DNA of 64,000 bases. Source: Paracamarosporium sp. OC-R06-R3. Taxonomy: Eukaryota; Ascomycota; Dothideomycetes; Pleosporales; Didymosphaeriaceae. Below the pieces are notes generated by a model that searched no databases, was not told the DNA's origin, and saw nothing but the letters and a program-made list of their open reading frames with translations. A program made the position numbers and the translations under genes. The stretch is taken from positions 248,001 to 312,000 of the forward strand of contig JACVRA010000063.1 in assembly GCA_019828545.1 (NCBI GenBank), read 5' to 3'. Shown here piece by piece: positions 2,716 to 46,948 of the stretch; the stretch's first letter is position 1, and each line of letters begins with the position of its first letter.

Positions 2716-3648
2716 ATGGAAACGTCTATTCCAGACTCTTTTTGTATTCAGAAGCCATGGAACAATATCGCATATCATACCTACACTATCTGGCTCTTTA
2801 CGTTCTCTGATTTGAAGACTATCATTATTCCTACCAGCACATTTGGTTTGATTGGAGCATTCTCTGGCATACCTCTGCTGTCTGGGTCACTTCCTCCGGA
2901 GTCCATAATTGCCCGAGCGCCGCATGTACTTTTTTGGACATGGTCAACTCTTTTGCCATTCGCAATCAACAATCAAAGCAGCGAATCCGCTATTCTGGAA
3001 GACTCTCTCAACAAGCCATGGAGACCGTTACCATCGCGTCGAATATCAGTCAAATCAGCAAATATATACATGCTGATTCTTTATTGTGTAAACATGGCGA
3101 TCTCTTTCAAGATGGGTGCCCGTCGGCAGGCTCTGGCAATGGTGTTCCTCGGAACATGGTACAATCGCCTAGGAGGAGCTGATCGGAGCTGCGTGGAAAA
3201 AAACTTTATCAACGCTGCTGGATACATATCTTTTATAACTGGAGCCCTCAGCGTTGCAGCCAATACTAGAGTCACTGGCATATCATTCGGTTCAATGGCA
3301 GTACCATGGTTCATCTTCATCGGTCTCGTCATCTTCACAACAGTACACGCCCAAGACTTCGAGGATATGGACGGCGACGCAGCTCGACAAAGAAAAACCG
3401 TTCCTCTAGTCATTGGCGAAAATGCCGCAAGGTGGCTTATCACGCTCGCCATTCCACTCTGGTCAATGCTCATTCCATGGTATTTTCGGAGTCACGTGCT
3501 AGGGTATCTAGGGCCAGCTCTTCTAGCAGTTGTTGTAGCCTATCGGTTCTTTATGAAGCGAAGCAAAGATGACGACAAGAAATCCTTCCGGTTCTGGAAT
3601 CTGTGGATCGTCTCTTTGTATATAATTCCTTTCCATGTAAGTGGGTAG
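2716..3648 (+). CDS. UbiA-superfamily membrane prenyltransferase or terpene cyclase
   Basis: Polytopic UbiA-fold enzyme of about 310 residues. Members of this superfamily ionise prenyl diphosphates and either transfer the prenyl group or, in the fungal Fma-TC type, cyclise it. Motif 1 lies at about residues 85-110 as the fungal variant ending EDSLNKPWRPLPSRR; motif 2 is DFEDMDGDAARQRKTVPL at about residue 214. LGGADRSCVEKNFINAAGY in between is also typical of the fungal subgroup. Several hydrophobic helices are visible. The frame is open from ATG to TAG at 3648, but a good donor (GTAAGT, 3636) sits just before the stop, so a short final exon downstream is possible. No terpene or polyketide biosynthetic gene adjoins it, so the substrate cannot be inferred. 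Confidence 0.8.
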   Translation: METSIPDSFCIQKPWNNIAYHTYTIWLFTFSDLKTIIIPTSTFGLIGAFSGIPLLSGSLPPESIIARAPHVLFWTWSTLLPFAINNQSSESAILEDSLNKPWRPLPSRRISVKSANIYMLILYCVNMAISFKMGARRQALAMVFLGTWYNRLGGADRSCVEKNFINAAGYISFITGALSVAANTRVTGISFGSMAVPWFIFIGLVIFTTVHAQDFEDMDGDAARQRKTVPLVIGENAARWLITLAIPLWSMLIPWYFRSHVLGYLGPALLAVVVAYRFFMKRSKDDDKKSFRFWNLWIVSLYIIPFHVSG

Positions 3649-25287: not shown

Positions 25288-25809
25288 ATGTCCCACCTGC
25301 AATACTTTGACTACCCCAACTTCGGGACCCGTACAAAGCAAGACCTCAACTCCTCTCAAGCTGTTCGTATCGGCAACTCCATCGAAATATCCGGACAAGG
25401 CGGCTGGGACCCAAAAACTGAAGAATTCCCGGTCGCCCTGTCCGATGAGATCGATCAAGCATTCTCTAACGTTTCCCTCGCTTTGCAAACCGCCGGTGGA
25501 AAGGTAAGCTCACAAACCACCACGACCTACTCGACTTCACTGAACAGAAGCTATAGGGGTGGGAAGGCGTCTATAAGATTCGGATATACATCAACGTGAG
25601 AGGAGACGATGGGTGGCCGGAGTATGCACAAAACGTAGTCAGAAACCTCAAAAAGTGGTGTCCAGTCAGTAAAGAAGATATTTGGTCCATGTGTAAGGCC
25701 AAACTGATATTTTGAGCAGAACCATGGGCCGCTTCTGACGGTTGTAGAAGTGAAGGGTTTGTTCAAGGATATGCGGATCGAGATAGAAGCGACTGAGCAT
25801 GTGGCATAA
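25288..25809 (+). CDS. RidA/YjgF-YER057c-UK114 family protein
   Basis: Small trimeric enamine/imine deaminase family, cytosolic or mitochondrial; some members detoxify reactive 2-aminoacrylate. Exons 25288-25503, 25557-25664 and 25720-25809 encode 137 residues. Both joins are phase 0 and produce family sequence: TAGGK|GWEGVYKIRIY and LKKWCP|NHGPLLTVVEVKGL. GNSIEISGQGGWDP near residue 30 and the C-terminal EIEATEHVA complete the fold. The usual bacterial catalytic Arg-containing R-x-C/A-V segment is not obvious, and this variant resembles the fungal subgroup with a longer KKWCP loop, so exact activity is uncertain. Confidence 0.85.
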
Positions 25810-26150
25810 GGAATCAAAGGGATTGCCTGATAACACATGATGGATTCGAGTAGCACATAGCATGTATTGGGCGTTTAAGATTGCAGAGTTTGGGATGCAA
25901 TAATTTGAACATTTTGTATCATGAGTAACACTATATGATGAAAAGTGGACACTAAACAAACAATTTCTGTGAATAGCTCGGAATAATGCACATACCAGTG
26001 CAGCCTCTAGGTCGCATGTGCCCAGAAAAGTGCATGATCTCATCGAAACCGTAATAGACGCCGTGACGAGATTCGCAATGGAGTGACAGAGACCAGATGA
26101 ACCCATAAAGATGCCTCGTTCGTACATCCTACATCACCAATACTCAGACT

Positions 26151-29100
26151 CTATGGTCTTAGACCGAAAGATCCCGCACCCGCCAGTCTCTTCTTTGGCG
26201 GCTCTTCATGATCATCATCCTTCTTATTCTTTCTCTTCAAGCTTCGCTTTGGCTTAGTCTCGTTGTGATTGTATCCATCATGGTGATGTACCCATTTACA
26301 TTTCGAGTCTGAGCAGTTGTCGAAATTCTCACATGCGGGGCGTTGGCAAGGCTTTCCTCCATATCGGCAATTGAGGCAGCCGCTTGGGTCATCGTCGCAC
26401 CAAGTGTTCCACCACTGACCGTGGCAATTAAAGCACGCAACACCGCGGTATCCGCCATCGGGTACACCTTTAGGATCTATGCTTCGAGACGTGCCCCGAG
26501 CGCTTGCTTGGGCCAGAGAAGGTGACGGGGATTGTGCCTCAACGGGCCTTGAGACTCGAGAGAGGGCTTGATTTTGTTGTGAGGAATGGAATTGGGTACC
26601 TAACATTATGAGCTTGAGTTTCTATAACGACAGTGAAAATCACATACCATAGTTATGAAGTTGAGGAAAATAGATTTTGCCAGAGTAGTTGTTCTGAAGC
26701 TGGCCGTTGCTGTTGCTGTTGCTGTTGCTGTTGTGCTGAAGCTGGTTGTTCATGTCACTCTGGGGTTGGCGAGCCAAGCTGCTCTGGAACTGGTCACTTC
26801 CATTCTGGGAAGAAGCCGCCATGTCTTGGGAAAGAGAAACAGAGCCCACAATCTCTAAGTCGTCATCAATGAACTGATAGCCTTGTTTGTTGTTGGGCTG
26901 CTGAAATGTTCCGTTTCGACTCGGTTGCGGGAATGTAGGTATCGTTCCTTGGAATAGATCTGTTTGGCTTATGGGCGACGTCCAATTGTCGTCAGGAATC
27001 GTCTTCTGCGGCAGGCGTGGTACAGGGAAACTGTTTGCTTTCAGCCCCTGCCTCATGACGTCTAAGTATACAATTAGCGATTGAAACATAGATAGACGAC
27101 TCTAGGTGCCTTACTCATATCTCTAAGGGCATTAATTGCATCCTGTGAGAAGCTTGCTACTGCTGGACGCTCAATCGGGTTGGGGGCTTGAGCTGCATTG
27201 GGTAAGTTATTCGGAATCGTCGCCAGCTTCGAAGCTTGGAGTCTAGGTGAACGTCGTGGACTTGTATAGTTGTTCGTATTACTTTCAGGTAGAGCTTGCA
27301 AGGCCGGAGTAATACGTTCCTGAAGTGTCTCATCCTTAAGGTCATTGGTCTGCGAACTGATTTGGGTATTGGTCCACATATCAGGCACATCGCTAGAGGG
27401 TGTGGCTGTTTGTTTGTGATGCTGCATCAATTGCCGAAGATACCTTCTCTTCAGTTCATCTCCATTAACCCGAAGCGTTTGGTTGAAGGCCGCGTTAGTA
27501 GCTGTTTCCCTCGTTTTCTTATTGCTATCTAGCAACAAAGCATCTTGGGGTGTTTCAGCTTTATTCTGGCGGCGCCGTCGGGCGGACTGTACGAGATTTA
27601 GAACAACCCATTTCTGGAATCCCTGGACTTGCTGGGTCGTCATCTGTACTGGTTCTTGTAAAGGGTCAAGTGTCTTGGCTGTGGGTGCAGAAGTCTGCCG
27701 GCGGATTTGCTGTGATGGATCTGCAGTAGACGCTGTGGGAGGAGCACTATATAAACATTTAGTAAAAGACAAAACTCCTGTATAAAGTATTCAGACTCAA
27801 ATCCAAGCATTTTCTATAATCACTCAACAACCCGTACTAATAGCACCAATTGTTTCCCCTTTGCCTGTACTTGACTTACCTTGGAAGGTTCCCGATTTGG
27901 ATCGGCGAAGCGTAGCTGCTATTCGAGCGGGAAAATTGCCTCGAAGCTGGTCGCTCAGTAGTCAAGGAAGGAAAGGTATCTTGTAGACTCATAGAGGGAG
28001 TTGCGGTACCCGCACGAATCTGTTGAGCATTGAGTGCAGTGCCGAATGATGAGGTCTGGCGCACAGAATTGCCTTGGTGTTGTGGAGTTGCAGGAGGAAG
28101 CATCATGGTCGAGCAATCTTTGGACGGCGTATTTGGATGATTCGTTGTATTTCCACGACTTAGAGACGGTGCTGCAGTAGCCGGAAGAATCTGATTTACA
28201 TCTCTCAAAATACTGCCTCGGCCGGATGATGAAATGCCATTATGCGACAGACCAATCGATGTCGCGATGCCGTTGCCAGCAGAGATTAAGTCTTCATCCT
28301 GCATTGCAGATGTTGACGGCGTACGTGGGGTGGATGCGCCATTGCGTCTAGTCGGCGTCTGCAGGTGAGGGCCCCTGGCTGAAGGTGAAGCCCCAACCAT
28401 ATTCCTCAAATAAATGTTAATCAATGCCAAATTTGATGTTGAGATGATACTTACTTATTTGATGAGCGGTTTGGAGTAGCCCTGTGCTGGGACAAGGGTG
28501 TGGTAGGCGGTTGCTTATCAAGGAGGTCAAGGAGGTCCTTCCTGGGGCTCATCGCTTGTCTGTGTTCTTCTGCGCGCTTCTCCATTTCTTTCTTCAACCA
28601 TGTAATCTGTTGGTCTTTGGTCTCGATCTGCTTGTGTAGTTGGGACATCAAGTTGTTCTTGTGTTTGTCGGCATCTTCTTTCTCCGCCTGCACCTTAGCC
28701 ATCTTGTTTAGGAGAAGCTCCTTGTGGCTCTTTTCGCTGTCCAGCTCAGCTTGTTTGGCTTGTAGCTGCGCGATAAGGCTCTCCTTCTCCTTATCAAATA
28801 CCTTCTGTAAATCGGCCGTCCTCTGCTGAAGTATAGCCTGAGACTCGTCGACTTTCTGGGAGACTAAAGTGGTGTGAGCATAACCGTACACTTCAACAGC
28901 GCACTATGCGCACACAACTTACTCTTTGCGTTGTGTTCCTCAAGCGAAATAGTATCCTCGGGCGCACCTCTGTAAGCCGCCTCTTGTTCAAGCCGCTGAA
29001 CCTTTCGCTCAGTCATTAACATATAGTTCTCAAACCTTGCGGTCTCTTGTTGGATGTAGTTCCGAAGCCGCTCGGATTCGCGAATTGCTTCATTTCTTTC

Positions 29101-29226
29101 CTGCCATCGTCGTTGCGAACGGCTGATGGCGCTGGCGCATGAAGAACAATTTGGGTCGCCCTGTACCAATAGCGAATTCGGAACGGAGCTCTTCGCGGCG
29201 CCACCCGCGGGACTTTGGTCAGGCAT
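26151..29226 (-). CDS. Large coiled-coil protein with Cys/His-rich C-terminus
   Basis: Six exons (29226-28923, 28863-28455, 28404-27880, 27746-27115, 27061-26648, 26599-26151) with consistent phase encode 910 residues. An N-terminal CxxC (NCSSCAS) precedes about 200 residues of coiled coil (QKVDESQAILQQRTADL onward). Long Ser/Thr/Gln/Asn-rich disordered tracts follow, including an Asn-Ser repeat. A C-terminal Cys/His cluster (CFNCHGQWWNTWC, CLNCRYGG, CQRPACENF, CSDSKCKWVHHH) is probably zinc binding. The end is strongly basic (KPKRSLKRKNKK), a likely nuclear signal. No named family recognised; the layout fits a nuclear or chromatin scaffold, but that is inference. The intron between exons 3 and 4 is unusually long here (133 nt). 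Confidence 0.75.
26706..26733 (+). repeat. GTTGCT hexanucleotide microsatellite in coding sequence
   Basis: About four and a half copies of GTTGCT, encoding alternating Asn-Ser on the minus strand in exon 5 of the coiled-coil protein gene. Length changes in units of six would stay in frame. Confidence 0.9.
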
Positions 29227-32412: not shown

Positions 32413-32922
32413 TTAACCCTCTCTTGGTGTCGCCAACCCACCAGCACCAAGCATGCCCTTCACCATGAATTCACACATGTATTCATCCTCCTCCGCAACC
32501 TCAAAGTCAAATCTTGTCACATCTTCTTTGTAAGGCCATAGATACTGGCTCGTAACCCTGCTCATAGTCAGTTTCAACCACCAGCTTAGTCGGATGTAAG
32601 GGTCCTACCGATGGTGTTCATCACTTGCTTGATACTCCTCCAATGCCTTTCTATCTTTGTGGAAGCTGACAAGTGAGAATTCATATCCTTTGCTTCGTTC
32701 AATCGGATCCGTTATTGATGGGCCACCAACTAGAAGACGCCCGTTCAGTACACACGGGAGCGACTTTAAGGCCTTAAGTTGTGTGACGAAGGTTTGTTTG
32801 TGGGTGGCGGAGACAGTGGGAAGGAACTTGAAGAGTACTGGTGAATGTGAGACAGATTCGAAGGGTAGAGAGTACAAGGGTAATTTGGAGGGAGAGGTCT
32901 GACCAATGTGTACCACGGTCAT
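32413..32922 (-). CDS. Stress-response A/B-barrel (Dabb) domain protein
   Basis: Dimeric alpha-beta barrel domain, a fold found in stress proteins and in small enzymes acting on polyketides or hydroxy-acids. Exons 32922-32904, 32837-32609 and 32557-32413 encode 130 residues. Splicing the first intron (GTCAGA ... CACCAG, 66 nt) gives the canonical start MTVVHIVLFKFLPTVS; without it a stop-free 22-residue insertion interrupts the first strand. Later features are LVGGPSITDPIERSKGYEF and FHKDRKALEEYQASDEHHR, then YLWPYKEDVTRFDFEV at the barrel's last strand. The start lies 171 bp from a CGG-N7-CCG site shared with the cluster genes. Function in the cluster is unknown. Confidence 0.85.
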
Positions 32923-33092
32923 GGTTGACTTGACTTCGACAGGATCGATGAATGAGCGAATGGAGATTGATGGAGCACTGACGAAAAGACGAAACGTGAT
33001 AAAATGCAAAAGATTGTCTTGGACGAATGGTGAAGGGACTGTCTTGACTTATCAATGTGTGTTGCGACAGATGCTGGTTTTGTGGGTACTCA

Positions 33093-33105
33093 CGGAGAAT
33101 GTCCG
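33093..33105. promoter_or_regulatory. CGG-N7-CCG palindrome, candidate Zn2Cys6 site
   Basis: Sequence CGGAGAATGTCCG, 171 bp upstream of the Dabb ATG. It differs by one base from the site at 39019. An inverted CGG pair with fixed spacer is the usual binding pattern of dimeric Zn2Cys6 regulators. Confidence 0.55.
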
Positions 33106-33332
33106 CACTTCAGTAACGGAACGCTATCACGGCACGCTCGTCTACTTTTGTCTGCACCATAGTCTTGCAAATTCGCTTTGCTTTCCGAAATTCGGCTTCC
33201 AGTACTGATGCAGGTGGATGCGTTAAAGTCTTCCCTTTGATGATAAGAATCAGCCGCAGGGTGCGTGTATTTCGTGAACCATATTGTATGAGAGGATCAC
33301 CGTTGCTACATGGGTTTAAATTCAATTGTCTA

Positions 33333-34412
33333 CTACGACACCTCCTTTACGATCAAGGGCTTGGCTCCCACCTTGTGTGCCTCTGCATTCAGCGCATCTA
33401 TCTCTGCCTGCACCAAAGGTATGCCCGACCTCTCCCGGCGTTCCTGTTCAAGCTGTTCAAGCTCGCCCGGGAAGTAGATGCGATCTACCCCGGCAGCCTT
33501 TTCAGCGCCCACTGTCCTATCATATAGATACTGCATTCGCTCTCTGAAATCTTCCAAAGTCATGAACAGGTCCGGTTTGATAGCGACCAGAAAATGGCCT
33601 ACATCGGATGGCTTTGATGGGTCATAAGGTCCGGTAACATGGCCTGCAAATGCGGAGCCCGAGAGTACTCCAGAGAAAACATCCATCATAACAGCCAAAC
33701 CTGAGCCTTTCGGGCCGCCCATGGGCAGCATCACACCGCCATCAAGAGCCGCCGTGGGGTCATCAGTCGGGTTTCCGTCCTTGTCCAGTGCCCAGTCGAG
33801 CGGAATTTTCTCGCCCCGTCTCTTCGCTTTGTAAATCTTGCCGCGTGCAGCAATGGACGGAGCCATGTCGAGGATGAAGGGGTGCTCTTTACCTGGCGCG
33901 CCGCAAGCCAGTGGCGACACGCCAATAAGCTTGCTCTTTCCACCCCAAGGTGGCAATGCAGGACTAGAGTTGGTGAACACTAAGCTCATCATATCAGCGT
34001 CAAGAGCTTGCTGGATGATCCATGCGCTCATGCCAAAATGATTCGAGTGTGTGATGCTTGTCATTCCAATGCCGTAGATCTTCGCAGCTTCGATAGCAGC
34101 AGCCATGCCGGCATCTGCAGCGAGGAAGCCGAAACCATTTTGCGCATCCACATGCGATACCACTGGAGTGATTTGGGTGACTTTGGGTGTTGCGAGACCA
34201 TCCAGAACGCCTTGTCGTATTCGCTCCATGTAGGATGGTATCCGATTCATGCCATGTGTATCGACGCCTCGTAGGTCGGCAGCAATTAGACAGCGCGCAA
34301 CGATAACAGCATTTTCAGGGGTCACGCCGTTACCGACCAAGACTGCTTCCACAAAAGCTTTGGCGTTGTCTGCGTCAACATACTGTTTCTGTTCCGCAGT
34401 GGGTTCGGCCAT
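33333..34412 (-). CDS. Ldh2/malate-lactate dehydrogenase family oxidoreductase
   Basis: NAD(P)-dependent 2-keto/2-hydroxy acid oxidoreductase of the Ldh2 (YbiC/YiaK/AllD) superfamily, which acts on malate, lactate, ureidoglycolate, 2,3-diketogulonate or cyclic imino acids. Intronless, 359 residues. Landmarks: LRGVDTHGMNRIPSY near residue 47 with the conserved His, THSNHFGMSAW around 121-131, PWGGKSKLIGVSPLACGAP, and PMGGPKGSGLAVMMDVF. No signal peptide or obvious peroxisomal signal is visible. It is divergent from the Zn2Cys6 regulator with 268 bp between ATGs containing two CGG-N7-CCG sites. The substrate is probably a 2-keto (deoxy) acid produced by the neighbouring dehydratase; that is inference. 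Confidence 0.9.
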   Translation of the reverse strand: MAEPTAEQKQYVDADNAKAFVEAVLVGNGVTPENAVIVARCLIAADLRGVDTHGMNRIPSYMERIRQGVLDGLATPKVTQITPVVSHVDAQNGFGFLAADAGMAAAIEAAKIYGIGMTSITHSNHFGMSAWIIQQALDADMMSLVFTNSSPALPPWGGKSKLIGVSPLACGAPGKEHPFILDMAPSIAARGKIYKAKRRGEKIPLDWALDKDGNPTDDPTAALDGGVMLPMGGPKGSGLAVMMDVFSGVLSGSAFAGHVTGPYDPSKPSDVGHFLVAIKPDLFMTLEDFRERMQYLYDRTVGAEKAAGVDRIYFPGELEQLEQERRERSGIPLVQAEIDALNAEAHKVGAKPLIVKEVS

Positions 34413-34572
34413 GTTAGGATATTTCGTGGGTGATATAGGTACAGGAAATTAGCAGCAGCTGTGAATTTAGAGAGAGGAGAAATTCGATTTCAAAATATCT
34501 TCTCGATCTGAAATGTATAGCATTGTGATGGACAAGTTCAACGAATTGCCGCTCGTCGGGGTTTCGACCGCA

Positions 34573-34585
34573 CGGAATTTTCCCG
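34573..34585. promoter_or_regulatory. CGG-N7-CCG palindrome in Ldh2/regulator promoter
   Basis: CGGAATTTTCCCG, 161 bp upstream of the Ldh2 ATG and 96 bp upstream of the regulator's ATG at 34681. First of two such sites in this divergent promoter. Confidence 0.5.
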
Positions 34586-34615
34586 TAGCGCGCACCAGCT
34601 CTCCGCGACAAAAGA

Positions 34616-34628
34616 CGGACCTTCCCCG
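34616..34628. promoter_or_regulatory. CGG-N7-CCG palindrome in Ldh2/regulator promoter
   Basis: CGGACCTTCCCCG, 53 bp upstream of the regulator's ATG. Its closeness to that ATG suggests autoregulation. Together with the previous site it argues against the longer regulator start at 34513, which would place both sites inside the coding region. Confidence 0.5.
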
Positions 34629-34680
34629 TCGCCCTGGGTCCACTCTTCACAACTCTTTGCAATCCTTTGCACTGCTCTGC

Positions 34681-36854
34681 ATGGCCGGACGGGACTCGGG
34701 TCGTAATCCGCGTCTCAGACTCGCATGTGCGCGCTGTCAACGCCGGAAGATCCGCGTAAGTGGCGCGATCGAAGCAAACTAGACTGACGTAGGACACAGT
34801 GTGATGCTCAGCTCCCATCATGTACGAATTGCAGGAAAGCCCGCGCACAATGTACCGATGGAGAAAGCCTGCGACTGCAGAATGTTGCGGACGATCAGGT
34901 GGTATCGCATCTACGAAGACGTGTCACGTGGCTTGAATCAATCATTCGAGGAAGACTGCCCGATGTAGACTTGTCTGTGGAGGCGCCCCCTGAAACTTCC
35001 GAGCCGCCCGAGGAGACAATATCATCATTTGCCCAAGATGATCGACACGGTCCGTTGACAGAAAACTCGACTTCGGGTGCACAACAGAATGTCCTATCGC
35101 TACAAGCAGGTGTATTGTCGGATCAGCGCGCTCATGAGATCGGTCTCATCTCTGTGGGTGCGAATGACCAGCGTTATCTTGGTCCATCAAGCGGCTACTT
35201 CCTCGCTCGACTTTTGCTGAGCTGCTCTCCGCGAAGGCATGAACGACGTGAGCCGTTAAACAATGATGCCACGAATCTGGCGCAGTCGCTCATCGATCAA
35301 CTTGTGCAAACAACCTCTGGCCCATTACCTCTACCTGGGAGAGCGCAGGCAAATGAACTAGTCCGGATATACTTTGACACAGTACATCCTCAGTACCCGA
35401 TCCTGCACGAGCCTGCATTCGTGCAGGGTTTGGATCTTCTCTACGACGCGAATGTACAAACGCTCGAAACCGATGCTGTGGTTTCGTTCCAGGTGAATAT
35501 GGTTCTCGCTATCGCGTCAAGTGTTCTATCATCTCGGGTCAGATCACACGTCCCCGGCGAGTCTTACTGCCTATCTGCGTTGCAACATCTCGAACGGATC
35601 AATATCCAGAATTCTCTCCCTGGCCTACAATGCATCTTATTATTGCTTATTTTTACTATGCACAGTTCATATATGAGGATGAATGTGTGGTATCTGAACT
35701 ACCACTGCATTGCTGCTGTACTAGATCTGGGTCTACAAAGAGACGTTACAACGTTGTCTGGTATTTCTCTGTTGGATCAGGAGATGAGGACCCGCGTGTT
35801 TTGGACTGTTTTCTCATTGGACAGAACCATTGCAACTATGATGGGACGCCCTATTGGCCTGCGAGACGAAGCATGTGAGCTGCGGGTACGCTTGCTTGTG
35901 AAAACCCATGTTTACAACTTACTAACTCTTTTATAGTTGCCCCAAGATCTAGATGACCAAGTTCTAGATGGAACACTAGGTTCAGATGTCAACTCCACCG
36001 GCAACATGACTCTGTCCATCCACCTCTTCAAATTAGCGAAGATCAATTCCGAGATCAAATACGTTGCAAACAGTATTGTACGGGACGCGCCTTCATACGC
36101 CTATCCACCGGTATCCAACATACACGCCTGGCAGCAGGGTATGCTCGAACAGCTTAATCAATGGTATTCGACAATTCCGCAAGCTCATCATCGCCATGCT
36201 TATGTTCGCACCTTATGCGAGCTTCGCTACTATTCCATTAGGATCCTACTTTTAAGGCCTAGTCCTGCTATCCCAAAGCCTTCTAATGAATCGTTGATAG
36301 AATGCTACGGTCTTGCATGGCAGGCCATTCACCTGTACGACCAGCTTTACCGCCAGGACATGCTCGTGCATGACTGGCTAGCCTTACACGGCGTCATTTT
36401 TAGCACCATAACTGCTTTATACTGCATAAGAGCCGTTCCGGACCTCGCTCGACAGACGGAGCTTGATGAATTGATGAACGACCTCAGCTTGAGTCTGAGC
36501 CTTGTGAGTGTAGCAGGCGAGCATTGGTCTGGAGCGAAACGCAGTCGCCAAATTCTCGACGATATGGGAAGATCTACAGTCAAGTGGATTAAAGCTCTGA
36601 AAACAACGGTGAACCCTGAGATCCAAATGAACATCTCTGAATCAACGCCCCCAATGGGCACGACGCTGAGCGGTGTTTTCCCAGGGCTCACTCCGGCTGC
36701 CACGTTTCCGTCTGCAACACCATCAAATCTGAGCCTGGAAGATAGGTTTTGGGCGGATCCACCCCAGCAGTTCGCATTTGGTGACATAATGAATGTGGAT
36801 GATATCATACACAACTTGTTTGAGGATTTCATTCCGCAGATGAGTAATATATAA
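34681..36854 (+). CDS. Zn2Cys6 fungal transcription factor of the cluster
   Basis: Nuclear DNA-binding regulator. Exons 34681-34755, 34800-35885 and 35937-36854 encode 692 residues. The binuclear zinc cluster begins CARCQRRKIRC and continues CTNCRKARAQC, with perfect Cx2Cx6Cx6Cx2Cx6C spacing. The first intron falls inside it, splitting KIR from CDAQ. A short heptad helix (VVSHLRRRVTWLESII) provides the dimer interface. The fungal middle-homology domain follows (ELVRIYFDTVHPQYPILHEP, DLGLQRDV, FSLDRTIATMMGRP), joined by the third exon at CELR|LPQDLDD. The C-terminus is acidic and Phe-rich (DDIIHNLFEDF), like an activation domain. Its position between Ldh2 and the dehydratase, and the five CGG-N7-CCG sites nearby, suggest pathway-specific control. 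Confidence 0.9.
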
Positions 36855-36942
36855 GGTTAGGTCAAATGAAGTGCGAAGACCATCTTGAAGGGTTCTTGGC
36901 AAGATTATACAGTCGGAGAAACTGAGTCTACCGGTATGGGAC

Positions 36943-38849
36943 CTAGGGTCCAGCAGCGGTCAAGAAGTCAAAATCCGCTCCCTGATTGGCCTGGTTGACT
37001 GATCGCATATACAATCCACGATAGCCTCTGGTGTGCTCTTGAGCCGCCTTGCCAATGGCTTTGGATTCAGTTTTCCTTGCTTCAATCCTCTGTCTAATCA
37101 CCTCATCTGTTACATCGAGTTTCAGTAGTCTCTTCTCAACATCGCATTCAATGATGTCGCCACTTCTCACGATGCCAAAAACAGACTCCGGGTCCGCAGA
37201 CTCTGGCGATATGTGCAAGACGATTGTTCCACCAGCTGTACCACTCATTCTTCCATCTGAAAGCCGCAGCATATCCTGCACTCCCTGTTCCCCAAGTTTG
37301 CGTGGAATGGGTATCAGCCCAGCCTCAGGCATCCCTGGATTGCCTATCGGACCAATGTTTTGTAAAACTAGGACGCTTTCAGCATCGACATCCAACTCTG
37401 GATCATCAATTCGTTGCGCCATGTCTGCAGAGTTCGCAAACACAACAGCCTTCCCTTTGTGACTCAATAATTTTCGATTCTTGGAAGCACTAGCTTTCAT
37501 GACCGCGCCCCCAGGCGCCAAGTTACCCCTTAGGACGACGACAGATGATGAAGGGTAAAGTGGATCCTCCAGCGGATGAAGACAGTTTACAGGGCTGTTG
37601 CGGGGTACAGGAATCCGAGGTGCAGAAGCGATCTCCTCGCCGAGTGTCTTTCCTGATACGGTCCGGGCATTCAAATATAAGAGAGGTTTGAGCTCGTGTA
37701 GCAATGCTAGCATGCCACCACTGTTATGGAAATCCGTCATATAATTCTCTCCACTTGGTTTCAGATCGACCAATAGCGGTGTCTTTCGACCAATTTCGTC
37801 GAACGTGTCGAGGTCAATGGTTCCTGCGACTTCGGGATGGCGCCCCATGATGGCCATTAAATGGACCACGGCATTCGTGGAACCGCCGATCGCTTGAAGT
37901 ACCGTAATTGCATTAAGGAACGATTCCCTCGAAAGAACCTGCTGCGGCGTAAGTTTTGTCACAGCCGCTTGCACAGCAAGTTTGCCGGTTTCTTCAGCGA
38001 TCCTCAACCGGGCTGAAGACACAGCTGGGGCTGTCGCGCCTTTGATAGGCATCATTCCTAAAGCTACAAGAATGCAAGCCATAGTGCTCGCTGTGCCCAT
38101 CACACCGCATGTACCAGCCTAGATTTTGTCAGTCGACGATCCAGTCTCCTTAAACTGTGGCTTACTGTGGGTGCCAGTTCGTCGTTGATAGCCGAAATGT
38201 CTTCTAAATCAATCGCACCGGCGCGAAACTTGGCCCAGTTATTTCTGCAATCTGTACAAGCGCCTATTCGAACACCGCGATGGCTCCCTGGCATCATCGG
38301 ACCCGTTATCAGATGCACAATAGGCTTGTTTGCTGAAATACCACCCATCAACTGTGCGGGTGTCGTTTTATCGCAGCCTTCATCTTAAGTTAACATCGAC
38401 ACACATGCTGCTTCATTGAGAACCTCACCTCCAATCAAGACCACTGCATCACACGGCTGCGCCCTTACCATCTCCTCGGTGTCCATGCTCATTAAATTCC
38501 TCAGGAACATACTCGTCGGACTCGCAAAACTCTCATGCAAACTGATTGTCGGGAAATCAATAGCAAGACCGCCGCTTAATTGTATACCTCTTTTCGTAGC
38601 TTCTATCAGCTGGGGAATATTTGCGTGGCATGGATTGAAACTCGAGTATGTGTTGACGATACCGATGATAGGTCGCGACAATGCATCTTCGCTATAGCCG
38701 AGCGCCTTTATGAAGACCTTGCGGAGGAAGAGCGAAAAATGAGCGTCGCCGTATGATGTCAGACCTTGACGGAGACCCGGTGCATTGTTAGGAATAGGCG
38801 TGTTGAGATCATAGTCAACGTTCGGATGTTGTTGGTGTTGTTCTGCCAT
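36943..38849 (-). CDS. IlvD/Edd family dehydratase, sugar-acid (pentonate/hexonate) type
   Basis: Iron-sulphur dehydratase converting an aldonic acid to its 2-keto-3-deoxy acid (or 2,3-dihydroxy acids to 2-keto acids). Exons 38849-38429, 38377-38166 and 38118-36943 encode 602 residues. The three cluster cysteines are Cys74 (NPCHANIP), Cys142 (GGCDKTTPA) and Cys215 (AGTCGVMGTASTM). The C-terminal DGRMSGTAGGTIVLHISPE follows the pattern of arabonate/xylonate-type enzymes rather than the SGGSHG of dihydroxy-acid dehydratase in branched-chain amino acid synthesis. No mitochondrial targeting sequence is evident at the N-terminus, again against an Ilv3 role. It is divergent from the SDR with two CGG-N7-CCG sites between them. 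The exact aldonate is unknown. Confidence 0.88.
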
Positions 38850-38945
38850 GTTTGCTTGAGTTGGTCACTCAATTTTGGACGAGTAACGTGAGGCATATTA
38901 TGCTTATGGGACGGACGCGCGGGGTAGGGTTAGGCGTGGGCCAGA

Positions 38946-38958
38946 CGGACATACTCCG
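38946..38958. promoter_or_regulatory. CGG-N7-CCG palindrome in dehydratase/SDR promoter
   Basis: CGGACATACTCCG, 97 bp upstream of the dehydratase ATG and 253 bp upstream of the SDR ATG. Confidence 0.5.
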
Positions 38959-39018
38959 CAACGACGACATCGCTAGCTAAGCCCAAGATGGTAGACAATC
39001 AAGTGGGTACGCGACAGG

Positions 39019-39031
39019 CGGAGAATCTCCG
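39019..39031. promoter_or_regulatory. CGG-N7-CCG palindrome in dehydratase/SDR promoter
   Basis: CGGAGAATCTCCG, a near-perfect palindrome midway between the two starts (170 bp from the dehydratase ATG, 180 bp from the SDR ATG). Twelve of 13 bases match the site at 33093. Confidence 0.55.
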
Positions 39032-39210
39032 ACGACACCAGAGTTAGATCTGAACACGACCATTAGGTACGAACCCCCAAACCCAATTCTTTTTTCGTAT
39101 CAGTCTCAACTCCAGCTATCCTTTCATTTTTGTAACGACCGGCACTGCAAACTTTTTTAAACTCACTTGTGAGCGAGAAGCTAGACTTTGCGGGAATTCG
39201 AACCATCGTC

Positions 39211-40014
39211 ATGCTAGACCTCAAAGGAAAGGTCGCTCTCATCATTGGACTCGGTCAAACGGGAACCGAAGGATGGGGTATCGGAGCTGCTTGCGCGGTA
39301 CTCTTCGCTCGTCAAGGAGCTATAATCTACGGCGGAAACCGCACCCTAGCATCAACCGCAAAGACGACACAAACAATACGCGATGAAGGTGGGGTATGCG
39401 ACATCATTCCAACGGATGCGACAGACTCTTCCTCCATGAAAGCGCTCGTTGATGCTTGTTTAACAAAACACGGTCGCATTGATATTCTTGTCTGTAATGT
39501 CGGCCAATCGCAACCCGGAAACGCCGCAACAATGGAAGAAGAGATATGGGATGCGCAGATGGACATCAATATGAAGAGCGTATATCTGGCTTGCCACCAT
39601 GTCTTGCCCGTCATGGAAAAGCAACCCGCCGGTGGGGCAATCGTATGTGTTTCCAGCATCGCAGGAATGCGGTACATTGGCAAGCCGCAGATCGCCTATA
39701 ACACTGCCAAAGCCGCGATCCTCCAGTTCGTCAAGACAACAGCGGTGGTGTATGCAGACAAGAATGTCCGATTAAACACTGTGGTTCCTGGGCTGATGGA
39801 TACGCCATATACTAAGCATCTTGCGGAGCGGTATGGGAAGGATTACCAAGAATTTAGGGAAGAGAGGGAGCGACAGGTGCCGATGGGAAGGATGGGAGAT
39901 GCATGGGATGTTGCTAATGCGGCGTTATTTCTGGTGAGTGATGAGAGTAGGTATATTACCGGGCAAAAGATTGTAGTTGATGGAGGGATTACGGGGAGCA
40001 CTGGGAAGGCTTGA
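39211..40014 (+). CDS. Short-chain dehydrogenase/reductase
   Basis: NAD(P)-dependent SDR of 267 residues, no intron. Cofactor loop GLGQTGTEGWGIG (residues 13-25), NVG at 96-98, catalytic Ser148/149 (VSSIAG), Tyr163 and Lys167 (YNTAK), and the usual C-terminal GQKIVVDGG. The expanded glycine loop, with four extra residues compared with TGxxxGxG, is the variant seen in some fungal sugar-acid and diketo-acid SDRs. The start is ATG 39211, because upstream in-frame codons lack ATG. It is convergent with the broken transporter. In the cluster it could oxidise the sugar or lactone before dehydration, or a 2-keto-3-deoxy acid after it. Confidence 0.92.
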   Translation: MLDLKGKVALIIGLGQTGTEGWGIGAACAVLFARQGAIIYGGNRTLASTAKTTQTIRDEGGVCDIIPTDATDSSSMKALVDACLTKHGRIDILVCNVGQSQPGNAATMEEEIWDAQMDINMKSVYLACHHVLPVMEKQPAGGAIVCVSSIAGMRYIGKPQIAYNTAKAAILQFVKTTAVVYADKNVRLNTVVPGLMDTPYTKHLAERYGKDYQEFREERERQVPMGRMGDAWDVANAALFLVSDESRYITGQKIVVDGGITGSTGKA

Positions 40015-40322
40015 TATCGATCATATCTCCCTAAAGTAATAACTTATGGCTCCCCTGCAGTTTATTCTTAACTCTCTGAATCATCGTTACCACCGGTTTT
40101 GGTGTCTTCAATGCTACTAGTCGTAGGTTTCATTCCAAACTCGACACCAATGACCTCAAGAGCGTGGGTAAATTGTTGGTCGAACCGGATATGATAAGAT
40201 TATTGGAGAATTAGCATAGCGCAACATCACACAGAGCAACAAAATCACATAGTTTCCAGTGGTTCTGTTCACAGGCACTTCATTCCATGCTCTATTGAAT
40301 ACTGCTCATACTTATTCCTAGA

Positions 40323-41650
40323 TCACTGCGCTCTGCGATTTGGCGGAATCTCATGGCCGGTTACTCCGTAGTTGGTCATAAGATGTCCGACGTCGTAGCC
40401 AGGCGCGCGCGAGTGCAAGCTAACGAAGCTGGGATTTGCTGCGGGACTTGCGGATACGATAGGCGATCCGCCAAATACTTGCACGTAGCCAGTAAATGAG
40501 CTGGGGTTCGTTAAGGCATTCTCCTTCTCGTTCCCTGGTGACGCGAACATTCACGCAGGCTCGCGCTTGGCCATCGGTGTGCTACCAGATCCGCCGATCA
40601 TCTACTCTTCGTGCACCGGAGCTTTCCTGCCGAGGTCGACTTGTCCATTGGTGAAACCCATCAAAGACACTGGAGAAGCATCGTAGTGTGTCCCGTCGAT
40701 TACAGGCGCATCCACACCCTGTAAGTATTGGTAGTAGATATACGTGCCCACGAAAAGACCGCCACCTAAGATGTTCTTGAGAGCTGCTGGAATCATGCCT
40801 TTCCATATGTAAAGACCGACACTCAAGTTCGGTGTGCCGACCCAGATCCCCATTGAAACGATGAACATATTTGCCACGACTAGGTTCTGATCAGTATACT
40901 TGTATATTCGCATGCACATAGTTTTTCTTACCGTGGTCAAACCCAAGGCTAATGAAGGCAAATGTGGGCCACCAAATCCCAACGATCTTACTCACATACT
41001 CTCGTCCGCTAAGACCTAAGAAGCAAGTAAGGTATACCAACTAATTCGCTCCAATGCCCTTTAGGAACACTTGATGCCATTGAGGTGTAACCTGCTTGGT
41101 TGTAACAAAGGCGCGAACTTCAGCAGCGTATGCAGGTGCATCAAAAACACCACCGTACCCTGCGATAATGCCTACGATGAACAACGACCCAGCAAGATTT
41201 CCCAAGAAAGTAAGAGCCCAGTGCATGAGCATCTTCGGGATTGAGAGCCGGCGATGGAGAACAGCAACGCTAGTAAACTAAGCTAATCAGTGCTAGTAGT
41301 GGATGGTTGAGAAATTGCAGTACGTACCAGGAACGATCCAGTGCAGAGATCTGACCCTGTCAAGACGATCATACATAGGCCGTATGGAAAGACAAGAGCA
41401 GCGATAGTTCTGATCAATCCTGGGGCATTCGTTTGGAACCAGGGAGCCGTATTTGTGCTTAAGACTATTACACAAGCGAAGGACAAGAGCATACCAGCCA
41501 TAACTCCAGACATGAACTATGATGATGCAACTAGATCCAGGAACTGCGTCTGGTGAAAATGTGATGTCACAGAAGGAAAGAATAATTACCATATGTCCTG
41601 ATCATGCCATTGATGTCGTGCTCTTCCGCAAAAGCGTGCACACTAAGCAT
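40323..41650 (-). pseudogene. Formate/nitrite transporter (FNT) family, broken by in-frame stops
   Basis: FNT channels carry formate, nitrite, lactate or acetate. Recognisable coding pieces are FMSGVMAGMLLSFACVIVLS (about 41516), GLCMIVLTGSDLCTGSFL, then FTSVAVLHRRLSIPK after an intron, HWALTFLGNLAGSLFIVG, and FDHVVANMFIVSMGIWVG after another intron. The second FNT signature, normally GANWLVCLA, reads GAN-stop-LVYLT (TAG at 41043-41041). Two further in-frame stops occur downstream: TAG after PVHEE and TGA after MAKREPA, between 40604 and 40551. The frame then stays open to 40323. A possible fourth TAG lies at 41519-41517 just before FMSG, depending on an unresolved splice site. No frameshift was seen. 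The likely first exon starts at ATG 41650. Confidence 0.8.
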
Positions 41651-42702
41651 TGCATGTGAATCATAAAAGTAATCAGTCATTGAACAGAAGTCATTGAACA
41701 GAATACGTCGATAGTCAATCTACCCGCCGAAGCAAAATGCTAGTGCATCTTATTATGCACACACAAGCTCGGTGGGGTGCAGATCGTCAGCAGGTAAATC
41801 TGACTCAAAGCAAAATCCGCATCTGCACCAGGCTCGCAGGAACTATCTAACCAGTCTTTGAGCTCGATACGCTCAATAATTGATATGTGGGGGTAGCTTG
41901 TACACAACAATTTGCTTTAAACTGATACATGCGACTGTTCGGAAGCTTATAAAGCCGCCGTCAACCTATGAACTATGCTATGGAATGACAGCGCTACTGA
42001 CTATATCTCAATTCCTGTCAAGGAGTTTTACCATAGGTATCTGTACCGTTGACGTGCTGAGATTGTCGATCATCACGTGGATACGAACACATCGTCATTT
42101 ATGCTTAATCATCAGGTTAACTTACTAGGCAGCAACACGAAGCGATGTTCAAAACCATGCCAACCGCACAATATTACGGGTATCATCTCCTTGATTCGAA
42201 CGCAAGAAACAAGCCTCTCATGAGATATGACTTGTTTCGATCCTTGAAAGCATGTACTGCCTCCAACATCCCAATCTATCGGCCGCTAGGTCATATATGA
42301 ATATGCTAGACTTGTGCAAATCCCCCAGTCGGACAAGGAATACGATTCTTCCCTCTAGAATGAGCCTCGAGCCCAAATTGGTTGCATCGATGAAACGTAT
42401 TTTCCTCACCTCGCCATACATACCGATTTTTTGATTCGGTCAGTGTTTAATATGTATTTTCAAAGGTGCGCATTGCTTGTTTGAGGGATTCCAGTATGCG
42501 TTAGGGATAAAGGAAGCGCCGAAAAACCATGGACGTGTTTCATCTAGGAATTTCGCGATGGTCGTTCAGAAGGTGGTGATCGGTAGCGAGTGGCTGAAGT
42601 GGCCCCCACAGCCTCGTGACCGCGTTCGCGACGCATCAATTAATCTCTGCCCTGTGGACACCCATATGCATCCACAGTGCGGCCGTACTCGATGCAGATA
42701 TA
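41651..42702. other. Intergenic, no gene supported
   Basis: About 1 kb upstream of the broken transporter and the large fusion gene. No CGG-N7-CCG site was noticed here, unlike the other cluster promoters. Confidence 0.45.
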
Positions 42703-45700
42703 ATGAGTCAGGAGTGTAAGATTCGGTTGAAGCAGGTTCAGTGTCCTGCAGCTGACACCTTTGCCAGCCACCTCAAGCGCGGGGAACCCACACGCACCGC
42801 CAGTTATCTCCATTACAGAGCCTCAGGACGACATCTTTGATACTGACACGCGAGGCTTCCTCCAGGACTGGGAAAATAAATACACCAATTCCGCATCGCC
42901 AGTGTCCCAGGCGGAATTCTTTGCGCCGGTGGATTTGCTGACCAGCCATGATGCGTCGCGTACGAACGACGCGCAAATTGAGGATGACAATATTCCTTTA
43001 CATCCATCAGCACCTCGTATCATCATCAGCGAACCAGATACAACCACGGTAGAACCTTCTTTTCTAGAAGAGCGACCAATCTTAAAAAAGGCTTCACGGC
43101 TGGACAAGAAAACGGTCTTTCTCGACAAAACAGACCACCCGGCCCAGGCTGCACCGAGATTACGTCAACAACGGAGACATAGCACTATCAGCCTTATACC
43201 TGAACCTAAAACCACCAACCATGGGCAATCACCAGCGAAGGATGCTCAGCCCCGTCCAACCCCTAGGCCATGGACAGTAACTGAGATTCATCCGAAGAAT
43301 GGGTGGAAGATGAAAATGCGATACGCTGCTGGTAGTGCAACAGTAGCTGCTGTCGATGTCGTAATGGTATACCTGTACAACTCCGCGACGAGCAATCAGC
43401 TGGATCGCGACGCGGATCTTGCTATGTTCAACCACTATATTCACCCCGAACCTCATGATAGAGAAACATCACCCACAAGGAAAATCCAGCGGGCACGGAC
43501 GGAACTTGGGAAGCAACCGAACTTGGATGTCCTGGATTATTCTACACCAAAACATTGGACACCACAAGTAGATGTACACAAAACACGACGTCAGCATGTA
43601 AATTTCCTGAAGGATGCCGATATGCTACCAAAGCAAATACCTGGTATGCGGCTTATGACAGTGGGCTACGATATTAAGGCGACCTTAGCAAGCAACCCTG
43701 ATTTTGAAACTGCTGCACGGCAACTATACGATTACCTCCAGCAACATCGAAACGAGCACACAAAGGCTCCTATGATTTTCCTAGGGCATACTTTAGGAGG
43801 GCTCTTCATAATTAAGGCTTTGTCAGAATATCAAGCCAAGTCTACGGCTAATGCTATGCTTTCGGACACAGCGGGCGTCTTTCTCTTCTCCAGTTATACA
43901 TCCTTTTCTCAAGATAGAATGCAGGTGCTCGCCAACCTATATGGAGCAAAGCCTACCGAAAAGATGTTCACTGAGCTTTCAAGGACTTCGGCCGCCCAGA
44001 AGGTTGGTAATGCTGCGAAGAGCCGATTGTTAGTTCAATATCCGCACGTTCAATTTTCAAATGTGGTACAGAAGGATCAAAAAGGATCTGCATCTGTCTC
44101 AATTGGCTTTCCAATATTCCAGGTGTTGGCGCGAGGCGAGGTTGATGATACCCGAGATGCATTTGGGATCTCGCTGAGCAGTTTTCTCAATACACCGGTG
44201 CGGACAATAACCGTGGATAAAGAGCCGGCAAACTCACTCAAGTTTTCAAGCTCGCAAGACTCAGATTTTCTCCACCTGTCGATGTTGATACAGTCTGCCT
44301 TACAAACTCATAAGCTTCTCCAAGCGGCGGCTTTAGGCCGGGTGGATGACGTCCACTCCATGATCCGTAGAGGTACAAACGTCAATTTGCGAGACCGATG
44401 GAGTCAAACAGCGTTGCAGATTGCCGTCCGGTTGAACCACGAGGAAGTTGTAATTAAACTTCTAGGTGCGAAAAACATTGATCCAAACGTACGTGACAAG
44501 TTGTCGAACACGCCTCTTCACTACGCGGTTCGGACAGGCAACGAGACCATTGTCAGAGCTCTTATCCATAATGGGGCTGACATCAGCCTCGAGAATCAGC
44601 GCAAGCGAACTCCCAGAGATCTTGCAGAGAAGCAAAGGTCTCGCAAGCATATTGCGAAACTATTGAAGAGCAGGTTGATGAGTGGACCGGATCAGAGTCC
44701 TTCTAGCAAGCTAATTGGATCAGGCAGGCCGCCAACGTCACGAGATGGTATCCTAGCATGCAAAAACTCCCAGATCACAATTACGGAAATCTATGCCACC
44801 AGGAATAGCGACAAACACTGGAGTGTTAGCGTCTCTGTGGAAGCACTACTTTACGGGACAAGCACCCTCGATGATATACTTGACCAAGTAAGGCCGCAAG
44901 CTGTGAAGGTAGAATCACCTATTTGCGTATGGATTCACGTTCCTGAGAACAACATGATCTGGGTGGAAGACTTGTTCGCCAAGCTTCGTCTCCATCCAGC
45001 AATATGGCAAGACAGAAGGCGATCGGTCACAGAATCGCTACGGAACCGTGCGATAACTCCGCATTTCAATTTTGGCGATATTCGATCGCTGTTCTTACCA
45101 TATCTAAGCTATGAAGCGAATTTTCGACAGACAAAGCGGACCGCGTACATCCAAACAGTTGATGCAACATACCAGCAGCAAAGGAGTACAGAACTTCCTT
45201 TCGCAACTAGTGCGCTTGCTGCTCTGGCAGAGGGGAGTAGCCGGGGAAACGCTGGTGAGCGAAGACCCTTACTACAGGTTCCAGAGGGAAAGAATCTAGA
45301 GAGCTACCCTTACCTTGATGAGGACTCTGATTCTGACTTTTCGGAGATAGCCGAGGCTGATGATCCGGACGACTTGGAAGAGGAAGAAAAGGCGTTAATT
45401 AATGCGTACTTATACAACCCTCCAGCTCTGCACATTCGAAGAACATTAGATCAGTATTACTACCATATGCTAGAAAGTACGCACGAGCGCGACATGGATC
45501 AAGTGGTGTCACGATGGGCTCACAATGTAAAATCTGAACCTCACCACAACCTTCTTATGGTAGACCAGCTCTGGCTATGGATGGCTCAAAGCGGTGGGAC
45601 TGTTACGCCTGGCGAGCTCGAGATGCAAAGATTGAGACGACGGGATGGTAGCGGCGATAGGATAAGAGGAAGATCGCCTGATAGGAGCTCGCTTCAGTGC

Positions 45701-46948
45701 ATCGTTTCATGTTTTCCTAATCGGATTGGGAGTGGCCAGCTTTCGCATCGCACTCTCGACGATCTCAGACTACGTGTTCTGGATCCGAACAGCCGCAAGC
45801 GGGATCCTATACGCCAGCCCGAAGATCTCTTATCACGAATTCTGGAAACCTGCTGCAGTACTTTCGATAGGATGCAAGACGTAGAGATGCTTCGCTTCTT
45901 TCAAATGTTCGAGGATTCGATTGGCATGATCGATGATAAAGAGAGCAGACTATTTCGTGACTTTCAACGAGGCTCCAACAAACTACTTGAGCTTGATAAC
46001 AGTAACAAGTATTACGACGAGAAGAAGAATGCCCTCCTGACAGACCTTCTTGACATCAGAGAAGAGATCTCTTTGTTGGTCGAAGTCAAAGACATCCGAG
46101 ACGAGATTAACATCGTTCTTACTGTGTTGAGCATACAACGAACACTCATCGACCAGATGAGTCAGGCAACGGAAGAAGAGGACGCCTTGTTACGCACTCC
46201 AGTCGTCAAGAACATAATCTTGGCAGATATCAATGATTTCACTAAACTCGACAGCCAAGCCAGGACAATCCAGGAAAAGCTAAACACGTTGATGGACCTC
46301 AAGCAAAAAGCTGCGAACGCCTGGGAGGCTAAGGAAGCTCGCGAAACCGCCGTAGCGACCGGCAAGCAAGGGAATACGGTATTAGTTTTTACTGTCGTAA
46401 CTATCATATTCCTCCCATTGTCGTTCATGTCGTCCTTCTTTGCCATTGGCATCGCCGCATTCCCACACAATGCTGAAAGTGGAGAGGTTGACTGGCCCCT
46501 GGGAACCGTTATGGGTCTCCTGTTCGGCGTCTCGCTCTGCGTATCGATTCCTCTAATCATCTTCGCTCTGAACATGGATTACTTCACTTCCGTATACAAG
46601 GAGCTACGGAACAACTATCTCGCCGGCATGGCTATTAGAGTGATACCTTTACTTCCACCACTCGGCTCGAATAAAAATTACACTGCATATCGCAGGCGCT
46701 GGACGGGATTACTCCAGCAGCGCCGCGAGGATTACATGAAGAACGACGACGTAGCAGTAACGAGTCCATGGATGGACCATGGCCAATCTGCTGATGTGAA
46801 GCCAGGTCCAAGCTTTCCGTCGACTGTTTCATCATATACATATGTAGAGGAAGATGAAGCAGCTTCTTTTCCGCACACCCGGAGAAGGCATCGACGCTTC
46901 CGCTCGCAACAAAAAGCTGTTGACGATGAAAGCTTGATCGGTATCTGA
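42703..46948 (+). CDS. Hydrolase-like / ankyrin / CorA-like membrane fusion protein
   Basis: 1397 residues from a 13-nt first coding exon (42703-42715, MSQE plus one base) and a 4181-nt second exon (42768-46948). N-terminal disordered Ser/Pro/Asp region to about residue 165; then an alpha/beta-hydrolase-like domain with elbow GHTLGG at 344-349 (Thr in place of the usual Ser); three or four ankyrin repeats around 521-630 (TALQIAVRLNHEEVVIKLL, TPLHYAVRTGNETIVRALI); an acidic linker near 855-885; and a C-terminal CorA-like helical domain. The two TM helices are at about 1209-1232 and 1250-1275. The usual GMN filter at the end of TM1 is replaced by AIG (SFFAIGIAAFP), so ion transport is doubtful. 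The layout resembles fungal immune-type receptors lacking an NTPase; function is inference. Confidence 0.8.

What the first reader, a model, noticed from the sequence alone, without database searches (positions are those of the whole stretch)
33093..39031. Five CGG-N7-CCG palindromes in three promoters of one gene cluster: a candidate self-contained regulon
Seen: CGGAGAATGTCCG (33093), CGGAATTTTCCCG (34573), CGGACCTTCCCCG (34616), CGGACATACTCCG (38946) and CGGAGAATCTCCG (39019). All have spacer 7, all have A after the first CGG, and T or C before CCG. They fall only in the intergenic DNA in front of the Dabb gene, between Ldh2 and the Zn2Cys6 gene, and between the IlvD/Edd dehydratase and the SDR (about 1 kb in total). 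A random CGG-N7-CCG is expected about once per 4-5 kb at this base composition, so roughly 0.2 were expected. Known: Zn2Cys6 dimers bind CGG pairs with a fixed spacer. Inferred: the cluster's own factor binds here and autoregulates.
Basis: partly seen in the sequence, partly recalled or inferred. Interest (0 to 1): 0.78.

Follow-up and report, generated by a model that had tools for sequence, protein, structure and literature searches.

The report
Shared promoter switch of fungal cluster
A five-gene fungal gene cluster, probably for breaking down a sugar-like acid, carries the same kind of 13-letter palindrome in front of every one of its genes, most likely the docking site of the regulator the cluster itself encodes; this is a common kind of fungal gene switch, with an unusual spacing.

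Summary
In detail: five CGG-N7-CCG palindromes lie at the stated places, all within three intergenic stretches (1,040 bp) serving all five genes. Expected there: 0.17 at the genome-wide rate (6967 sites in 43.1 Mb). Spacer 7 accounts for 5 of 7 inverted CGG/CCG pairs with spacers 0-24; 0 of 20,000 shuffles reach five. Read in one orientation the sites share CGG-RRWANNT-CCG. Restricted close pairs exist at four places in the genome, two of them here. Gene content (Dabb, Ldh2, Zn2Cys6 factor, IlvD/Edd dehydratase, SDR) is confirmed. The genome is close to Didymosphaeriaceae. Factor and Ldh2 genes stay neighbours across several Pezizomycotina. Best reading: the cluster's own PPR1-like Zn2Cys6 homodimer binds these sites and controls the five genes, its own included. 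Binding, expression and site conservation in orthologous promoters could not be tested; no DNA of fungal relatives was reachable. 'Self-contained' is not established: 106 loose consensus matches exist genome-wide, and a second factor-amidohydrolase locus carries similar sites. New member of a known kind.

The parts
33093..33105 (+). Site 1 CGG-AGAATGT-CCG, 170 bp upstream of the inferred Dabb ATG
34573..34585 (-). Site 2, oriented CGG-GAAAATT-CCG, 160 bp from Ldh2 ATG and 95 bp from the factor's ATG
34616..34628 (-). Site 3, oriented CGG-GGAAGGT-CCG, 203 bp from Ldh2 ATG and 52 bp from the factor's ATG
38946..38958 (-). Site 4, oriented CGG-AGTATGT-CCG, 96 bp from IlvD/Edd ATG and 252 bp from SDR ATG
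39019..39031 (+). Site 5 CGG-AGAATCT-CCG, 169 bp from IlvD/Edd ATG and 179 bp from SDR ATG
32413..32922 (-). Dabb-domain gene (two exons, splice inferred by eye)
   Evidence: Pfam Dabb 34.9 bits against cut-off 25 with both exons; 22.8 with the first alone
33333..34412 (-). Ldh2-family oxidoreductase, single exon; the only match found in its genome
   Evidence: Pfam Ldh_2 E 1.8e-127
34681..36854 (+). Zn2Cys6 regulator, 692 aa, exons 34681-34755, 34800-35885, 35937-36854 (inferred)
   Evidence: Zn_clus and Fungal_trans; splicing; relatives
36943..38849 (-). IlvD/Edd dehydratase, 604 aa, three exons (inferred)
   Evidence: ILVD_EDD_N and ILV_EDD_C; splicing; full protein passes NCBIfam PRK06131 (719.5 against 539 bits), not L-arabinonate dehydratase (571.4 against 882)
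39211..40014 (+). SDR oxidoreductase
   Evidence: adh_short_C2; closest solved chain 5jc8 E 3e-65
34413..34680 (.). Divergent promoter region Ldh2 / factor with two sites
38850..39210 (.). Divergent promoter region IlvD/Edd / SDR with two sites
32925..33335 (.). Promoter region of Dabb gene, downstream of Ldh2, one site

Best explanation
The five palindromes are operator sites of the cluster-encoded Zn2Cys6 factor. The factor forms a homodimer through the helix behind its zinc cluster; each zinc cluster grips one CGG of an inverted pair held 7 bp apart, with some preference for the spacer RRWANNT. Bound at one site (Dabb) or two (each divergent promoter), it switches the catabolic genes Ldh2, IlvD/Edd, SDR and Dabb, and its own gene, together, probably as an activator when a sugar-like acid or an intermediate of it is present. 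Shown: sites, spacing, statistics, gene content, domain conservation. Inferred: binding, dimerisation, direction of regulation, inducer, autoregulation.
For: 5 sites in 1,040 bp against 0.17 expected; 5 of 7 inverted pairs with spacers 0-24 have spacer 7. Mean spacer similarity of the five is reached by 57 of 20,000 random quintets drawn from 93 other own-genome sites. Restricted close pairs CGGAN5YCCG-N30..60-CGGAN5YCCG occur at 4 places genome-wide, 2 here, 4.4 kb apart; the same with spacer 8: 1 place, with spacer 6: 0. Strict consensus CGGRGWAKSTCCG: 4 of 23 genome matches lie here. Looser CGGRRWANNTCCG: 5 of 106 lie here; among the 100 of 106 places listed, only one other pair lies within 3 kb (C306, 43 bp apart). 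Patterns and restriction were derived from these sites. Factor DBD closest to PPR1 among solved chains. Six cysteines invariant and an L..R..WLE stretch invariant or nearly so in 16 relatives chosen from the 120 listed. Factor and Ldh2 have consecutive locus tags in 6 of 6 assemblies that show the same tag prefix for both, and contigs of equal length occur 28 times between the two lists of 120. No CGG-N7-CCG from 39,032 to 44,200, which covers the neighbouring formate/nitrite-transporter gene.
Against: No binding or expression data; no orthologous promoter could be read. PPR1's own spacing is 6, not 7 (recalled). Look-elsewhere over spacer and arrangement: 28 of 20,000 shuffles. Two of five sites (34573, 34616) lack the full CGGA...TCCG palindrome. 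The count of four restricted pairs is in itself unremarkable: the reversed-pattern controls of the pair tests gave 1 (spacer 7), 8 (spacer 8) and 9 (spacer 6), and without the restriction there are 62 pairs genome-wide (reversed control 119). Of 11 loci (3.5-4.8 kb; two overlap) of weaker relatives of the factor in this genome, 8 hold at least one CGG-N7-CCG somewhere, so single sites near factor genes are common. Linker length varies among relatives.
Confidence: 0.78

Rival explanations
1. The sites are real operators but a different Zn2Cys6 factor encoded elsewhere binds them, and the cluster's factor is only one of their targets or a partner in a heterodimer.
For: The genome has many related factor genes (60 stretches match this factor, its own two included); a second locus with its own factor also has CGG-N7-CCG sites beside its divergent start (L024).
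Against: A factor is encoded in the very cluster that holds the sites, and the tight consensus spacer is rare elsewhere (4 of 23 matches here; pattern derived from these sites). The L024 sites have different spacers.
Confidence: 0.13
2. Chance: the palindromes arose by chance and nothing binds them.
For: A 5.9-kb stretch with five sites is not unique after genome-wide correction (Poisson 0.003 per stretch); L024 holds 9 sites in 10 kb (chosen for its pair).
Against: 0 of 20,000 composition-preserving shuffles; GC of the three stretches is 0.45-0.49, not raised; spacer similarity and pairing.
Confidence: 0.06
3. The regulon is wider (compatible with the best explanation): the same factor also controls genes elsewhere (transporter, lactonase, aldolase) and the cluster is only its densest part.
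For: No substrate transporter other than the neighbouring formate/nitrite one, and no lactonase or aldolase, among the frames scanned (not every frame was scanned); 101 loose consensus matches elsewhere; L024 carries an amidohydrolase, an MFS protein and a 2-hydroxyacid dehydrogenase near CGG-N7-CCG sites.
Against: 15 of the 19 strict matches outside the cluster lie in an open frame of 90 codons or more. L024 has its own factor and other spacers.
Confidence: 0.35

Closest known systems
PPR1 / UaY-type Zn2Cys6 regulators
   Same: Closest solved DNA-binding domain is PPR1 (1pyi, E 1.8e-6); several relatives are labelled 'positive regulator of purine utilization' by their sources; inverted CGG half-sites.
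   Different: Spacing 7 instead of 6 (6 recalled); no inverted N6 pair in the three promoters; the enzymes match no purine or pyrimidine family, apart from a below-cut-off ureidoglycolate dehydrogenase score of Ldh2.
Pathway-specific regulators of fungal sugar and sugar-acid catabolism (FUR1; GaaR and RhaR recalled)
   Same: Zn2Cys6 factor with sugar-acid type enzymes under joint control.
   Different: FUR1 is the closest XYR1 homologue of T. reesei and binds CCGACGG (PMC12370193: outline with abstract, and passages); no direct comparison with the present factor was run. GaaR and RhaR sites were not compared.
Gal4-like dimers in general
   Different: Spacer length 7; eight spellings of CGG-N7-CCG gave zero papers (one search asked for it together with 'Zn2Cys6'), which shows only that those spellings are absent from that library.

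Membership tests
Zn2Cys6 (Gal4-type) regulator | Six-cysteine binuclear zinc cluster | tested here: met
   Zn_clus 40.1 bits on the spliced N-terminus, cut-off 21; six cysteines invariant in 16 relatives
Zn2Cys6 (Gal4-type) regulator | Fungal_trans middle domain | tested here: met
   84.1 bits, cut-off 23
Zn2Cys6 (Gal4-type) regulator | Coiled-coil dimerisation helix after the linker | tested here: inconclusive
   L..R..WLE stretch conserved in sequence; no structure or coiled-coil prediction was run
Cluster-specific regulon with own factor | Same CGG-pair site in all promoters of the cluster | tested here: met
   5 of 5 genes have a site within about 250 bp of the inferred ATG
Cluster-specific regulon with own factor | Factor binds and controls these promoters | not testable with these tools
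   needs EMSA, ChIP, deletion
Cluster-specific regulon with own factor | Sites conserved in orthologous promoters | not testable with these tools
   no DNA of related fungi reachable; two scans of viral contigs found no relative; the metagenome collection was capped at 0
Cluster-specific regulon with own factor | Sites absent from promoters in the rest of the genome (self-contained) | tested here: inconclusive
   5 of 106 loose and 4 of 23 strict consensus matches lie here; of the 19 strict ones elsewhere 15 lie in an open frame of 90 codons or more and 4 do not; the 101 loose ones elsewhere were not placed as a set
PPR1/UaY-type | Inverted CGG with 6-bp spacer (recalled) | tested here: not met
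   0 inverted N6 pairs, 5 inverted N7 pairs in the three promoters
Non-phosphorylative sugar-acid pathway | IlvD/Edd-family sugar-acid dehydratase | tested here: inconclusive
   full protein passes the cut-off of PRK06131, named only 'dihydroxy-acid dehydratase', and stays below the L-arabinonate, ilvD, edd and D-xylonate models; best solved chains 8ej0 and L-arabinonate dehydratase 9evv (third exon); substrate unknown

The most novel reading that the evidence does not exclude
A PPR1-like Zn2Cys6 factor, conserved with its Ldh2 neighbour across several Pezizomycotina, reads an inverted CGG pair with a 7-bp, orientation-bearing spacer (RRWANNT), a spacing for which my searches of one open library found no paper, and runs an undescribed fungal catabolic pathway whose dehydratase and SDR have a linked bacterial counterpart.
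Probability: 0.4. Interest if true: 0.45.

Novelty: new member of a known kind. Interest (0 to 1): 0.36.

Why it matters
It gives a ready, testable DNA target for a group of fungal regulators (the 120 relatives listed are 40% or more identical over the aligned part), many of them labelled only 'hypothetical' or 'purine regulator', and a handle on an unassigned sugar-acid-type pathway. If spacing 7 holds, comparing its linker with PPR1 (6, recalled) and others would test how Zn2Cys6 linkers set spacing.

Tried and rejected
Tried without result: eight spellings of the motif in paper searches (no papers; together with 'Zn2Cys6'); paper searches on the enzyme combination, on Zn2Cys6 spacing and on sugar-acid clusters (none; some searches gave lists, of which I saw titles and abstract starts and none described this cluster there; only PMC12370193, outline with abstract and passages, and PMC5559640, passages, were opened). 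Fungal DNA from viral contigs with Ldh2 and with a factor alignment: no relative. FUR1 as orthologue: set aside (XYR1 homologue with another motif by its paper), not compared directly. Purine or L-fucose pathway: considered because of names and enzymes, nothing here points to either. Other genome matches of the strict consensus as regulon members: 20 frames scanned at 10 of the 19 strict places outside the cluster plus L024; no coherent set. L023/L018 (C306) pair: non-coding DNA with a further similar arm nearby, possibly a repeat; dropped. Not used: structure prediction, fold search, Rfam.

Circularity and bias: the consensus patterns and the A/Y restriction of the pair test were derived from the five sites. 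The unrestricted pair test gave 62 places genome-wide, against about 35 for uniform placement (my arithmetic), reversed control 119, so only the restricted test singles this cluster out. The background of the spacer test (93 sites) includes sites brought in by motif searches; whether they are coding was not sorted. The unselected sample includes loci brought in as relatives of the factor and of IlvD. The first NCBIfam scan of IlvD used the third exon only and understated its scores; one search used the whole protein.
Full report
What is there. The window belongs to a 43.1-Mb genome in 337 contigs. The best named relatives of its proteins are Didymosphaeriaceae (Pleosporales; lineage of one of them): the factor is 74-76% identical to Paraphaeosphaeria and Karstenula proteins, Ldh2 91% to P. 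sporulosa and 92% to an unnamed metagenome protein. All five reported palindromes are present. The gene calls hold: Ldh_2, Zn_clus plus Fungal_trans, ILVD_EDD and an SDR, and Dabb once its second exon is joined (34.9 bits, cut-off 25). The next gene to the right is a formate/nitrite transporter.

Is it more than chance. Genome-wide CGG-N7-CCG occurs 6967 times, one per 6.2 kb; the pattern read backwards occurs 10169 times. The three promoter stretches total 1,040 bp and hold five, against 0.17 expected; 0 of 20,000 dinucleotide shuffles reach five, and 28 of 20,000 reach five in any of 75 spacer-and-arrangement classes. Of all inverted CGG/CCG pairs with spacers 0-24 in these stretches, 5 of 7 have spacer 7 (one each at 8 and 23). 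DNA outside long open frames and not selected for the motif (26.7 kb) has 0.15 sites per kb, with no preference for spacer 7 (4 sites; the spacers 0-24 range from 0 to 8). Against: five sites in 5.9 kb has a Poisson probability of 0.003 per stretch, which some stretches of a 43-Mb genome will meet.

More than the triplets. With the centre base set to A, the five read AGAATGT, AGAATCT, AGTATGT, GGAAGGT, GAAAATT. Their mean pairwise similarity is matched by 57 of 20,000 random quintets from 93 other sites of this genome. Restricted close pairs occur at four places, two of them in this cluster, against 1 and 0 for spacers 8 and 6; the reversed-pattern controls gave 1, 8 and 9 for spacers 7, 8 and 6, so a total of four is nothing special and the point is that two of the four lie 4.4 kb apart in one cluster. 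Without the restriction, which was learnt from these sites, there are 62 pairs genome-wide. Strict consensus matches: 23 genome-wide, 4 here. Loose consensus: 106 genome-wide (reversed control 129), 5 here; among the 100 listed, only one other pair lies within 3 kb.

Who binds. The encoded factor has a complete Zn2Cys6 cluster and the fungal middle domain. Its nearest solved DNA-binding domain is PPR1, an inverted-CGG binder (spacer 6, recalled). Passages of PMC5559640 state that Zn2Cys6 proteins typically bind CGG pairs as homodimers through a coiled coil behind the cluster. Of the 120 relatives listed, 84 matched a six-cysteine pattern near the N-terminus; the distance from the last cysteine to a W-[LIVM]-E motif is 24 in 64, 25 in 5, another value in 7 and not found in 8; the window's own is 25 by my count. 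So linker length is mostly but not strictly fixed, a caution for assuming one spacing in all relatives. Factor and Ldh2 genes have consecutive locus tags in 6 of 6 assemblies showing the same tag prefix for both (Kalmusia, P. minitans, Fusarium oxysporum, F. sarcochroum, Fusarium sp. DS 682, Cosmosporella), and contigs of equal length appear 28 times between the two lists of 120; equal length was taken as same contig and not checked name by name.

Limits of the regulon. Of the 19 strict matches outside the cluster, 15 lie in an open frame of 90 codons or more and 4 do not. One other restricted pair, at C46:107775 (L024), sits between an amidohydrolase and another Zn2Cys6-type gene, in what looks like a second catabolic cluster with an MFS protein and a 2-hydroxyacid dehydrogenase and with different spacers; its second site may fall inside the factor's first exon. 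Whether it is chance, an independent regulon with the same spacing, or part of this one is open. The remaining pair (C306, L018/L023) is in non-coding DNA.

Pathway. The whole IlvD/Edd protein passes NCBIfam PRK06131 ('dihydroxy-acid dehydratase' subfamily, 719.5 against 539 bits); the next model, L-arabinonate dehydratase, is not passed (571.4 against 882). The genome holds two other IlvD relatives (38% and 35% identity). Ldh2 matches sulfolactate and ureidoglycolate dehydrogenase models below their cut-offs. In 1 of 80 bacterial loci kept (of 150 found) with the SDR, an IlvD/Edd relative (55% identity over 581 residues) lies beside it in the same divergent arrangement (L120); 7 of 80 hold a distant Ldh2 relative (27-30%) and none a Dabb match. 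L120 also carries TctA and TctB transporter proteins, an RraA-like protein and a cupin. This fits acid catabolism but names no substrate, and one locus of 80 is thin evidence.

Verdict. The new elements are the spacing and consensus, and the unassigned pathway.

Noticed in passing
L024 (C46:103000-112999), sites at 3608, 3629, 3643, 4662, 4776, 4830, 8474, 9280, 9728: Second locus rich in CGG-N7-CCG (9 in 10 kb) with an Amidohydro_2 gene, a divergent Fungal_trans factor gene, an MFS protein and a 2-hydroxyacid dehydrogenase.
   Followed up: partly
L023 4900-5200 (C306:619044-619099): Two full palindromes in non-coding DNA with a further similar arm about 30 bp on; may be a repeat rather than a promoter.
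   Followed up: no
L120 63-7307: Rhodospirillales MAG contig with IlvD/Edd (55% identical to the fungal protein) divergent from the SDR relative, as in the fungal cluster, plus TctA, TctB, RraA-like and cupin genes; possible transfer or shared ancestry of the gene pair.
   Followed up: partly
about 40323-41600 (-): Formate/nitrite transporter gene next to the cluster, without a CGG-N7-CCG site.
   Followed up: no
42731-46945 (+): 1405-residue open frame with ankyrin repeats, a CorA-like stretch and a weak hydrolase match.
   Followed up: no
25669-29226 (-): Run of medium-length minus-strand frames; the two tested gave no Pfam match.
   Followed up: no
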